A stretch of 64,000 nt of DNA. Source: a bacterium. GTDB lineage: Bacteria > Elusimicrobiota > Elusimicrobia > Elusimicrobiales > UBA9959. The notes under the pieces were generated by a model, which saw only the letters and a list, made by a program, of their open reading frames with translations, was not told the origin of the DNA and did not search any database. Below, one piece after another: positions 9,567-15,442 of the stretch; position 1 is the stretch's first letter; each line of letters begins with the position of its first letter. The stretch spans positions 43,954 through 107,953 of the forward strand of contig JAJZPF010000005.1 of assembly GCA_021811315.1 (NCBI GenBank), given 5' to 3'. Both the position numbers and the translations under genes were made by a program.

Positions 9567-10282
9567 AAATATTTTTCCTGCGCTGCGACGACGTAACGAA
9601 ACCCGATAAGGCTTTCCTGCGTATTTACGGACCGCTCAGGGCTGCCGGGCTGCCGGTTTCCTGCGCCGTTATCCCCGCCCGGGCCGGGCAGGCGCTGGCC
9701 GCCTTCTTCCGCGCCGAAACCGCCGCCGGCGCCCGCCTCGAAGCCTTGCAGCACGGCCTCAGCCACGCCGAACATTCCGGCAACAGGTACCTCAAGCAGG
9801 AATTCGGCCCTTCGCGCTCTTATAAAGAGCAGCGGGCCGATATAGCCGCTGGAAAGAAGCTGATGAAAAAGCTGTTCGGGAAAATTTCAAAGCCGGTTTT
9901 TGTGCCGCCGTTCCACATTTACAATTCGGACACGCTTAAAGCCCTGGCAGCGCTCGGATTCAAGGCGGTCTCCGCCAGCCGGCGGCTGAAGGAGCCAATG
10001 CCGCGGGGCCTGGCTTTCCTGGGCACCAGGGTTACGGTAAACGAATATGACCTGGAACTAAAGCCCCGCCCGCTTTTTTTGAGCCGGTTGAAATCACGGA
10101 CCCTGGCGGCCATAAAAGAGGGCGGCGCCCCCTCCGGCATCTATTTCCACCACGACGATATCAGGGGGAAGGACTTTGAAATTTTCTCGGGGTATATCTC
10201 TTTCCTGAAAGAGCTGGAAAACCGCGGGCTGGCCCGCTTTGTCCCGGCTTCCGAACTTATTAAAAAACCCTCTCGATCTTAA
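9563..10282 (+). CDS. Polysaccharide deacetylase-like (DUF2334-like) protein
   Basis: MKIFFLRCDDVTKPDKAFLRIYGPLRAAGLPVSCAVIP ... ALQHGLSHAEH ... FVPPFHIYNSDTLKALAALGFKAVSAS ... FHHDD. Confidence 0.65.
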   Translation: MKIFFLRCDDVTKPDKAFLRIYGPLRAAGLPVSCAVIPARAGQALAAFFRAETAAGARLEALQHGLSHAEHSGNRYLKQEFGPSRSYKEQRADIAAGKKLMKKLFGKISKPVFVPPFHIYNSDTLKALAALGFKAVSASRRLKEPMPRGLAFLGTRVTVNEYDLELKPRPLFLSRLKSRTLAAIKEGGAPSGIYFHHDDIRGKDFEIFSGYISFLKELENRGLARFVPASELIKKPSRS

Positions 10283-11225
10283 AGCGCTGGCAGCAGCGGG
10301 CGCAGCCCTGCGGCGGCCCGGCCTTGACCAGCCGGCGCTTGACCTTCAGCACAGCCGCCCGGTCAAAGTCTTTGGCCCGGCCCGCCGCCGCGCCGTAGAG
10401 AACACAGGTCCGTACGCTCCCGTCGGGCTCCACGTTAACGGTTGAAAGCAGCCCGGGGCAGGAGCCGGCGGGCTTCAGCAGCCCGTTATAATAGCGCTCC
10501 AACTGCGCGGGCGTAAAATCCGGCCGCAGCTCGAAGCGGGTTTTAAAAGCCCCGCGCAGCGCTTTTATTTTCTTTATCGAGGCCGCAAACGCGCGCGCAT
10601 CCAGGCGGTAGCCGTCCAGCGCCGGGGTAATTATTTCGGACGGGGAAAGCCCGGCGCGCGCGGCCTCCGCCTTTTTCACGAACTGCAGATGCTCGAAGAC
10701 GGCCCTGTCGGCGCCGGCGCGGGCCGCGTCGAGGTAAACGGCCGGCAGCAAGGCCGCGTTAGCGGCGTTAACGACGCAGTTGGTTATTATCTCCGTTCCG
10801 GGCCTTTTAAAGTCCGCCGCCGTTTTAAGATTTGCCAGCAGTTTTTTATGCGCGCCCCTCACGCGCAGGAGGCGGTCGTGCGCGGCGGCGGGGCCGTGCA
10901 GCGAAAAAATAATATAGGCCGGCCCTAGGGCCAGCAGCTTTTTTATTTTAGCGGCGTCCAGCGCCAGGCCGTTGGTATTGACCCCCCAATCGAAGCCGCG
11001 CGCGGACGCGTACGCCAGTATTCCGAAAATATCCTTTCGCAGAAAAGGCTCTCCCCCGCTGAAGTAGAAATGCGTGCCTGCCGGGAAGCGGCGCATGAAG
11101 GCCTTGATCTCCGCCTCCTTCATCTCCGGCCCCCGCCTGTTAAGGCGGCCCGTCTTTCCCAGGTAGCAGAAAGCGCAGGCCGCGCCGCAGCGCCAGGTAA
11201 GTTCCATCATCACGGTTTCTTTCAT
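10260..11225 (-). CDS. Radical SAM protein, last gene of the HxS-repeat peptide operon
   Basis: ELTWRCGAACAFCYLGKTGRLNRRG, FYFSGGEPFLRKDIF; ATG overlaps the upstream stop (ATGA), so the track start at 11516 is too long. Confidence 0.8.
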   Translation of the reverse strand: MKETVMMELTWRCGAACAFCYLGKTGRLNRRGPEMKEAEIKAFMRRFPAGTHFYFSGGEPFLRKDIFGILAYASARGFDWGVNTNGLALDAAKIKKLLALGPAYIIFSLHGPAAAHDRLLRVRGAHKKLLANLKTAADFKRPGTEIITNCVVNAANAALLPAVYLDAARAGADRAVFEHLQFVKKAEAARAGLSPSEIITPALDGYRLDARAFAASIKKIKALRGAFKTRFELRPDFTPAQLERYYNGLLKPAGSCPGLLSTVNVEPDGSVRTCVLYGAAAGRAKDFDRAAVLKVKRRLVKAGPPQGCARCCQRFKIERVF

Positions 11226-13895: not shown

Positions 13896-14035
13896 AAATT
13901 TAAACGCTACCCCGGACCCTCCCTTGAACAGCCGGACACCCTAACATATGTTTTACCACAAAAAACGACAATTTTCAAGCCCAAAAGATATTAAGGCCTG
14001 ACGGGAAACACCGGGGAAACTATTGCCGACACGCT

Positions 14036-15442
14036 TTAACTGCGGGCTATCCACTTCTCGAATATATCGAAGACGGGTTTCTCCGACAACTTCTCAAAGA
14101 TATAGTCAAAAACACCGATGAGCGTCCGGCAGCGCCCGTTCGAAGGCATGGAACCCCAGAAGCCGCCCTGAGCCGCCTGGTTATAGGCCGGGCAGGCGCC
14201 GCAGAACGGCTTGTAGGCGCAGCGCGCGCACACGGGCTGCAGGTCAAGGCTTGAGGAGATGGCGCAGGCCTTGACCGGCTCGGAGCTTATAACCCCGGCA
14301 TAGGCGTCCTTCAAAACGCTTCCAAGGCGGAAGGAGCGGTCCCCGCCGCGGGCGAGCATGCGGCCTTCGTCACAGGTATATACCCCCCCGTCGCAGTCGT
14401 AGGCCAGCTGGCCCAGGCCGGCCCCGCAGGGGCAGCGCAGGTCGACATACCTGTTATCCTGGGTGCCGATGATCTTTTTTACGGCCAGGAAAGCGGTTTT
14501 TTCTTTTATGGGCACGCCGCGCCGGTTAAGCTCCAGCACGCGGTCCAGCCCCTCCCGGTAAAATCCCAGGAATTCTTCCGGGGTATAGCCTATCTCGTCC
14601 CAGCGCTTCAGCGCGTCGCCGATGGGAGAAAGCGGCTTGAGGAAAACGTAGGGCAGCTTAAGGCGGGCGTACTCGTCAACTATTTCCCGGGCCCGCCCGA
14701 GCGAGGCCCTCGTAACCGTCAGCAGCGCGCTGGGCCCGCCGGGGGGCTCGGCCCCGCGGCGCTCCTGGAAATATTTTATCCACTTCGCCGCGACGGCGTG
14801 GGAATCGCCGCCGGAGAATTTACGGTTCGCGTTGTGCAGGTCCGCGGGCCCGTCCAGGGAGGTGCAGAGCGAGATATCGTTCGCGACTATGAAATCGGCC
14901 TTCTTTTCATCCATCAGGCTGAAATTGGAAACCAGCGCCAGGGCCAGCCCCTTGCCGGTCTTTTCCGCTTTTTTGCGCGCGTAAATAGAGGCTTCCTTCA
15001 GCGCGGCCCAGTTCACCAGCGGCTCGCCGCCCTGGAACTCCAGAGTGAGCCCGCTCACGGGCGCGCTGAAAGCGAAATCCACGGCGCGGCGGGCCGTGGC
15101 CGGGCTCATGTTCCTACCGGCGCCGGAGCCGGCCTGGCAATAGACGCAGCTATGATTGCATTTCTCGGTCAGCACCATTATATGCAGGCCCGGGCCAAGG
15201 CGCAGATATTCGTTGGAATCCCTCCAGTCGGTAAAAATAGAGTCGAAATCAAGGCGCGAGCGCAGAAGCCCTGCCCTCCGCAGCGCTTCAAAAGCCGGCC
15301 CGCTCTTCAGTTTGCCCGCGGCGAAGAGCTTGAACTCGGCGGGCTTAAGCAAAGCCCAGCCGCCCAAATCGCCGGTAACCAGCACCCCCGCCTTAAGGCG
15401 GCGCCAGTTAAAATAAGCGGGCAGGTCCAGCTGTTTTTTCAT
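14036..15442 (-). CDS. hxsB: HxsB-like radical SAM/SPASM maturase (His-Xaa-Ser system)
   Basis: YFNWRRL..GVLVTGDLGGWALLKPAEF; LHIMVLTEKCNHSCVYCQAGSG; LEFQGGEPLVNW; CTSLDGPADLHNANR; CDEGRMLA; CARCAYKPFCGACPAYNQAAQG; AGGAG upstream of ATG at 15442. Confidence 0.85.
   Translation of the reverse strand: MKKQLDLPAYFNWRRLKAGVLVTGDLGGWALLKPAEFKLFAAGKLKSGPAFEALRRAGLLRSRLDFDSIFTDWRDSNEYLRLGPGLHIMVLTEKCNHSCVYCQAGSGAGRNMSPATARRAVDFAFSAPVSGLTLEFQGGEPLVNWAALKEASIYARKKAEKTGKGLALALVSNFSLMDEKKADFIVANDISLCTSLDGPADLHNANRKFSGGDSHAVAAKWIKYFQERRGAEPPGGPSALLTVTRASLGRAREIVDEYARLKLPYVFLKPLSPIGDALKRWDEIGYTPEEFLGFYREGLDRVLELNRRGVPIKEKTAFLAVKKIIGTQDNRYVDLRCPCGAGLGQLAYDCDGGVYTCDEGRMLARGGDRSFRLGSVLKDAYAGVISSEPVKACAISSSLDLQPVCARCAYKPFCGACPAYNQAAQGGFWGSMPSNGRCRTLIGVFDYIFEKLSEKPVFDIFEKWIARS

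What the first reader, a model, noticed from the sequence alone, without database searches (positions are those of the whole stretch)
10260..15442. Hxs-type operon: HxsB-like maturase, Cys-containing anchored protein, HGS-repeat peptide, glycosyltransferase, radical SAM
Seen: five same-strand genes with short gaps or stop/start overlaps. The third is a 108-aa peptide with a Lys-rich leader and 16 consecutive H-x-S triplets (mostly HGS). Established: HxsB-type radical SAM/SPASM proteins define the predicted His-Xaa-Ser system, whose product is uncharacterised as far as I know. Inference: the HGS tract is the modified core. The classical HxsA/B/C/D layout does not include an overlapping glycosyltransferase and an extra radical SAM.
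Basis: partly seen in the sequence, partly recalled or inferred. Interest (0 to 1): 0.9.

Follow-up and report, generated by a model that had tools for sequence, protein, structure and literature searches.

The report
Split Hxs peptide system with glycosyltransferase
A groundwater-type Elusimicrobia bacterium carries a small, probably exported protein made of sixteen His-x-Ser repeats, next to an enzyme of the family predicted to modify it, a sugar-transferring enzyme found almost only beside it, and a second set of partner enzymes 20 kb away; its product is unknown but now testable.

Summary
The finding is real. HxsB1 (14036-15442) passes the HxsB model (431 bits, cut-off 370; next family 125) and the repeat protein (12357-12683) passes the HxsA4 model (91, cut-off 55). 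Its 16 H-x-S triplets show 12-16 synonymous and no amino-acid changes in every comparison among the window and three relatives, so the protein sequence is under selection.

A second cassette 20 kb away (25735-36206) holds a second HxsB (480 bits), two HxsD-like proteins, an HxsC-like enzyme, four more radical SAM enzymes, an A24-like membrane peptidase and a paralogue of the Cys-rich anchored protein. The two-cassette order recurs across the genus. HxsB and HxsA4 co-occur in Elusimicrobiota (89 of 94 HxsB genomes).

The glycosyltransferase looks dedicated: 20 copies in 59 family genomes, 18 directly beside an HxsA4 gene. HxsC and HxsD models stay below cut-off, so this is a variant of the Hxs system. 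NCBI already names HxsA4; no characterised Hxs product turned up in the literature searched.

Best reading: an exported RiPP-like His-x-Ser peptide modified by HxsB, probably glycosylated. Cyclophane chemistry is analogy only.

The parts
14036..15442 (-). HxsB1, SPASM radical SAM maturase
   Evidence: TIGR03978 431.5 bits, cut-off 370; CNHSCVYC motif intact
12762..13895 (-). Cys1, N-terminally anchored Cys-rich protein
   Evidence: No family; 27-member alignment with 11 invariant or near-invariant Cys
12357..12683 (-). HxsA4 repeat peptide: conserved leader, hydrophobic segment with AxA site, 16 H-x-S triplets
   Evidence: NF038313 91.2 bits, cut-off 55; leader conserved in 75 sequences; 0 amino-acid changes in tract
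11222..12370 (-). GT-B-type glycosyltransferase, starts inside the 3' end of the HxsA4 gene
   Evidence: Glyco_tran_28_C in 13 of 14 orthologues, best 1e-7; 18 of 20 copies directly beside HxsA4
10260..11234 (-). rSAM10, radical SAM enzyme of the same operon
   Evidence: PF04055 2e-17; no equivalog over cut-off
7121..8272 (+). rSAM7, HxsC4-like radical SAM, convergent neighbour conserved in genus
   Evidence: NF038332 97 bits, cut-off 500; synteny
8265..9566 (+). rSAM8, radical SAM, conserved neighbour
   Evidence: PF04055; synteny
9563..10282 (+). Polysaccharide deacetylase-like (DUF2334)
   Evidence: PF10096 5.6e-10; often, not always, detected in relatives
35727..36206 (-). HxsD-like protein upstream of HxsB2 (TTG start inferred from alignment)
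   Evidence: TIGR03976 24.7 bits, cut-off 50; conserved position
34298..35761 (-). HxsB2, second maturase
   Evidence: TIGR03978 480 bits, cut-off 370
33975..34301 (-). second HxsD-like protein
   Evidence: TIGR03976 18.8 bits, cut-off 50; family conserved after HxsB2
33058..33927 (-). Cys2, shorter paralogue of Cys1
   Evidence: Alignment A2
32133..33050 (-). rSAM32, HxsC4-like
   Evidence: NF038332 148 bits, cut-off 500
31237..32133 (-). rSAM31, HxsC-like
   Evidence: TIGR03977 150 bits, cut-off 267.9
30089..31240 (-). A24-like membrane peptidase
   Evidence: Invariant Asp23 and PAGDAK; 15 of 26 relatives hit Peptidase_A24
26982..30082 (-). three further radical SAM genes (29027-30082, 27818-29011, 26982-27827)
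   Evidence: Best matches HxsC4/HxsC, below cut-off
25735..26985 (-). SufS-type cysteine desulfurase
   Evidence: TIGR01979 263 bits, below cut-off 475; conserved at operon end
36269..36991 (-). probably exported TTYYPAPYG protein upstream of HxsD
   Evidence: 15-member alignment A5; conserved position

Best explanation
The locus is a two-cassette variant of the His-Xaa-Ser (Hxs) peptide-maturation system. The ribosome makes HxsA4: a cationic leader with a conserved SEEGKxLDxD...K block, a hydrophobic segment ending in an A-x-A site, and a mature part VHSNYF...(H-x-S)16-Y. Inferred steps: HxsB1, perhaps with HxsD-like partners and HxsC-like radical SAM enzymes of cassette 2, docks on the leader and modifies each H-x-S unit. 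The likeliest chemistry by analogy is a C-C cross-link from the His ring to the Ser beta carbon two residues on, which leaves the Ser hydroxyl free. The adjacent glycosyltransferase then glycosylates the tract. The peptide is exported and its leader removed by signal peptidase or the A24-like peptidase. Cys1/Cys2 act outside as membrane-anchored partners. Shown: genes, family scores, conservation, linkage, selection on the tract. Not shown: any chemistry. The confidence below is for HxsB-dependent modification of the tract in such a system; the exact bond (about 0.4) and glycosylation (about 0.5) are less sure.
For: HxsB1 and HxsB2 over the equivalog cut-off; HxsA4 over cut-off. HxsA4 is found in 96 and HxsB in 94 of 345 genomes, both in 89 (Fisher p about 1e-67; genomes are related, so p is optimistic). 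H-x-S tract: 12-16 synonymous and 0 amino-acid changes over 49 codons in all six pairs among the window and three relatives, while the first 59 residues have 3-7. Leader block SEE[GA] in the 75 collected sequences, AxA-like site in 72 (SEE[GA] was also the criterion for collecting). GT genes sit directly beside HxsA4 in 18 of 20 cases. The two-cassette order recurs across the genus. HxsB tree: window HxsB1 falls in a 15-row clade whose members all lie beside an HxsA4 (support 99), HxsB2 in a clade adjacent to the HxsC-like gene. Precedents for the chemistry: Phe-to-Ser (MscB) and His-to-Ala or His-to-Arg (HaaB, YhhB) C-C links made by SPASM radical SAM enzymes (PMC11002830).
Against: No Hxs product has been characterised in the literature searched; the cross-link is analogy only, and HxsB scores far below the cyclophane-forming family cut-offs (FxsB 30-36 of 370, YhhB 31-45 of 445). 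HxsC, HxsC4 and HxsD models are all below cut-off in the window. Two thirds of family genomes lack this GT (40 of 59), so glycosylation cannot be essential to the system as a whole. Which cassette-2 enzymes act on HxsA4 is unknown. The window's assembly is only 63% complete, so another HxsA for cassette 2 may be missing.
Confidence: 0.65

Rival explanations
1. HxsA4 is a histidine-rich exported structural or metal-binding peptide whose tract is not itself modified; HxsB1 modifies another protein of the operon such as Cys1.
For: Cys1 lies between HxsB1 and HxsA4 and has 11 conserved Cys; a His/Ser/Gly tract could bind metal unmodified.
Against: HxsB keeps company with H-x-S repeat peptides across phyla, and many loci keep HxsB next to HxsA4 or HxsA2 with no detected Cys1 (classical plasmid loci).
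Confidence: 0.13
2. The many radical SAM genes belong to the nearby nitrogenase-like locus (19185-24072) and make a modified tetrapyrrole or other cofactor; Hxs genes are bystanders.
For: NifH/NifD-like fusion, NifDK-like and ApbE genes lie between the cassettes; a group VI nitrogenase homologue of Elusimicrobiota has been linked to tetrapyrrole modification (PMC11257099 citing Meheust 2020); Nif-like genes also lie in HxsA4 loci L120 and L136.
Against: Only 3 of 77 named HxsB loci carry the Nif-like genes within reach (L070, L120, L136), whereas the radical SAM series follows HxsB regardless.
Confidence: 0.06
3. The glycosyltransferase and rSAM10 form, with the polysaccharide deacetylase 9563-10282, an envelope-sugar module unrelated to the peptide.
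For: The deacetylase-like gene is convergent and often conserved nearby; GT28-type similarity includes MurG.
Against: GT lies directly beside HxsA4 in 18 of 20 copies, with a stop/start overlap in the window and its closest relative; some loci keep GT and rSAM10 next to HxsA4 with no detected deacetylase (L081, L083).
Confidence: 0.16

Closest known systems
His-Xaa-Ser system HxsA/HxsB/HxsC/HxsD (TIGR03976-TIGR03979; HxsA2 on plasmids)
   Same: HxsB over cut-off; H-x-S repeat peptide with signal-like N-terminal segment; HxsD-like and HxsC-like partners present
   Different: HxsA lies after HxsB, not before; HxsC and HxsD models below cut-off; two HxsB cassettes 20 kb apart; extra GT, A24-like peptidase, Cys-rich anchor and many more radical SAM genes (median 6, up to 11 per 21-kb relative locus)
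HxsA4 / HxsC4 (NF038313, NF038332)
   Same: Peptide is HxsA4 by score; NCBI names it in Elusimicrobiales and Omnitrophota
   Different: No genome among 345 has HxsC4 over its cut-off; HxsC4-like enzymes here reach 85-148 of 500 bits
Triceptides / three-residue cyclophane-forming enzymes (MscB/FxsB, HaaB, YhhB)
   Same: SPASM radical SAM enzyme plus peptide with aromatic-x-polar motif, here His-x-Ser
   Different: Different enzyme family by score; long uniform repeat instead of short core; chemistry untested
Type IV prepilin peptidase A24
   Same: Invariant Asp and PAGDAK motif; 15 of 26 relatives hit PF01478
   Different: Window copy itself has no significant Pfam hit, and no fold match was found

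Membership tests
Hxs system | HxsB over TIGR03978 cut-off | tested here: met
   431.5 and 480 bits, cut-off 370
Hxs system | H-x-S repeat peptide near HxsB | tested here: met
   NF038313 91.2 bits, cut-off 55, 1.4 kb from HxsB1
Hxs system | HxsC over TIGR03977 cut-off | tested here: not met
   Best 150 of 267.9 bits; 1 of 345 genomes of the phylum passes
Hxs system | HxsD over TIGR03976 cut-off | tested here: not met
   24.7 and 18.8 of 50 bits in the window; 39 of 345 relatives pass
HxsA4/HxsC4 variant | HxsC4 over NF038332 cut-off | tested here: not met
   0 of 345 genomes
Triceptide / 3-CyFE | maturase over a cyclophane-forming family cut-off | tested here: not met
   FxsB 30-36 of 370, YhhB 31-45 of 445, GrrM 36-43 of 310
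Triceptide / 3-CyFE | cross-link between aromatic residue i and beta carbon of i+2 | not testable with these tools
   Needs MS and NMR
Glycosyltransferase GT28-type | Pfam Glyco_tran_28_C match | tested here: inconclusive
   Window copy 16.4 of 22 bits; 13 of 14 orthologues match, best 1e-7
Peptidase A24 | two catalytic Asp in membrane helices and Pfam match | tested here: inconclusive
   Asp23 and PAGDAK invariant; 15 of 26 match PF01478; no fold hit
RiPP | ribosomal precursor with leader and enzymatically modified core | not tested
   Leader and core inferred from conservation; modification not observed

The most novel reading that the evidence does not exclude
Elusimicrobiota make an exported, glycosylated peptide polymer in which every His-x-Ser unit is cross-linked by HxsB into a rigid cyclophane chain, with two HxsB paralogues and a series of HxsC-like radical SAM enzymes adding further modifications: a new class of glycosylated repeat RiPP.
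Probability: 0.25. Interest if true: 0.85.

Novelty: new variant of a known kind. Interest (0 to 1): 0.58.

Why it matters
Hxs systems are widespread (HxsB relatives on 408 plasmid records), yet no Hxs product is characterised in the literature I could search. This version offers a long, uniform substrate whose expected mass shift would multiply by up to sixteen, and adds a linked glycosyltransferase and peptidase that give separate, testable clues to what the mature product is and where it goes.

Tried and rejected
Chance or low-complexity origin of the tract: rejected. A hidden second HxsA: none by HGS-repeat pattern in the assembly or RGGWC pattern in the window, but the assembly is 63% complete. 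Collagen match (PF01391): taken as compositional. Prepilin-type cleavage of the leader after SEEG: Gly is conserved but the +5 Glu of prepilins is not, so left open. Fold searches of the A24-like protein and the second HxsD-like protein against the PDB gave no usable match. Profile searches of PDB sequences with GT, Cys1, A24-like and HxsD gave nothing useful. Literature searches found no biochemical work on Hxs. Meheust 2020 was not held.

Full report
Observation. The repeat peptide has 16 consecutive H-x-S triplets, 13 of them HGS. A degenerate HGS-repeat DNA pattern finds only this gene in the assembly. The window is part of a 107,953-bp contig of a 2.67-Mb, 63% complete genome; the closest named relatives are Elusimicrobiales and Elusimicrobia MAGs, up to 91% identical in HxsB1.

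Family scores. HxsB1 scores 431.5 bits to TIGR03978 (cut-off 370); the next SPASM family reaches 125. The peptide scores 91.2 to HxsA4 (cut-off 55). The anchored protein has no family. The GT has a weak Glyco_tran_28_C match, and 10260-11234 is a radical SAM enzyme without equivalog. Orthologues firm up the GT: 13 of 14 match Glyco_tran_28_C, best 1e-7.

The missing half. Searching the genome for HxsB gave a second, better copy in the same window (480 bits, 34298-35761). Around it lie two HxsD-like proteins (35727-36206 and 33975-34301), a shorter Cys1 paralogue, an HxsC-like radical SAM enzyme (150 of 267.9 bits), four more radical SAM genes, a membrane protein with invariant Asp23 and PAGDAK (15 of 26 relatives match Peptidase_A24), and a cysteine desulfurase at the end. 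All twelve radical SAM genes from 5146 to 39189 keep CxxxCxxC.

Conservation. In relatives the order HxsB1-Cys1-HxsA4-GT-rSAM10 facing PDA-rSAM8-rSAM7 recurs, as does HxsD-HxsB2-(Cys2)-HxsC-like-A24-radical SAMs-desulfurase. All 14 genus-level loci that keep HxsB1 and Cys1 (L070-L083) keep the repeat gene. In other lineages one cassette carries more of the parts, with HxsA4 just after HxsB; similar loci occur in Schekmanbacteria and Azambacteria (L114, L130). I infer that the window's arrangement arose by duplication and division of labour. The HxsB tree agrees, with HxsB1 in a 15-row clade all next to HxsA4 (support 99) and HxsB2 in a clade next to the HxsC-like gene (quick tree, several long branches).

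Phylum distribution. Of 345 Elusimicrobiota genomes, 96 have HxsA4 (81 over cut-off), 94 have HxsB (92 over cut-off) and 89 have both. HxsD passes its cut-off in 39, HxsC in 1, HxsC4 in 0.

Selection on the tract. Between the window and three relatives with 108-aa peptides, each of six comparisons shows 12-16 synonymous and no amino-acid changes in the 49 tract codons; the first 59 residues show 3-7 amino-acid changes. This rules out an unselected DNA repeat. Across 75 collected sequences (picked for H-x-S repeats plus SEE[GA]) the residue after SEE is Gly in 71, the flanking positions are strongly conserved, and an A-x-A-like site follows the hydrophobic segment in 72. Tracts run from about 5 to 36 units and end in Tyr, QW, AW or RGGWC.

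The glycosyltransferase. A profile of the GT finds 20 genes in 19 of 59 family genomes. Comparing positions, 18 lie directly beside an HxsA4 gene, one 1.6 kb from it (G131:C2), and one directly beside an HxsB (G107:C20). One (G138) is read with an internal TGA. This linkage is my strongest evidence that the sugar enzyme serves the peptide. As most family genomes lack it, it is an accessory.

Mechanism. Shown: precursor gene, maturase gene, linkage, constraint. Inferred: leader recognition, tract modification by HxsB, export and cleavage. Analogy: the His-to-Ser cross-link, from Phe-to-Ser (MscB) and His-to-Ala or His-to-Arg (HaaB, YhhB) precedents (PMC11002830). Speculative: glycosylation of Ser. 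In the literature searched HxsB is named only as a predicted maturase (PMC9062424).

Comparison. Classical plasmid loci read hxsA2-hxsB-hxsC (Acidiphilium) or hxsA2-hxsD-hxsB-hxsC (Nostoc). Their HxsA2 peptides also start with signal-like segments and end in a few H-x-S units. The window differs in gene order, in its sub-cut-off HxsC and HxsD, and in its added GT, A24-like, Cys-rich and radical SAM genes. It is therefore a variant of Hxs, not a textbook member. NCBI already uses the name HxsA4 for Elusimicrobiales and Omnitrophota proteins, so the peptide family itself is not new.

Nitrogenase-like neighbour. A NifH/NifD-like fusion, a NifDK-like gene and ApbE lie between the cassettes. A group VI nitrogenase homologue in this phylum has been linked to tetrapyrrole modification (PMC11257099). 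Only 3 of 77 named HxsB loci carry such genes nearby, so they do not explain the radical SAM series.

Noticed in passing
window 19185-24072 (+): NifH/NifD-like fusion protein (847 aa), NifDK-like protein and ApbE between the two Hxs cassettes; possibly the group VI nitrogenase paralogue reported in Elusimicrobiota. Similar genes recur inside distant HxsA4 loci L120 and L136.
   Followed up: partly
window 37113-38071 (-): Barstar-like protein (PF01337) next to a probably secreted ribonuclease (PF00545), conserved upstream of HxsB2 in many relatives.
   Followed up: no
window 36269-36991 (-): Probably exported protein with a conserved TTYYPAPYG block and C-terminal Cys-Cys, usually just upstream of HxsD-HxsB2; may be a structural partner.
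   Followed up: partly
window 1760-5141 and 38269-40962 (+): Peptidase U32-like genes, paired with uncharacterised partners and radical SAM or B12-radical SAM neighbours, flanking both cassettes.
   Followed up: no
L093, L097, L102, L106, L122, L127, L132, L135: A further, divergent HxsB-like paralogue (about 200-360 bits to the window HxsBs) forms a separate deep branch in the HxsB tree.
   Followed up: no
HxsA4 proteins in loci L010-L164: The C-terminus of HxsA4 varies by subgroup: Tyr, QW or AW, RGGWC, CRGGWC(C/N)PRC; those beside HxsB2-type enzymes with HxsD mostly end RGGWC.
   Followed up: no
G000:C27:10330-11148 (outside the window): Another HxsC-like match (147 bits) on the same contig, conserved in G149.
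   Followed up: no
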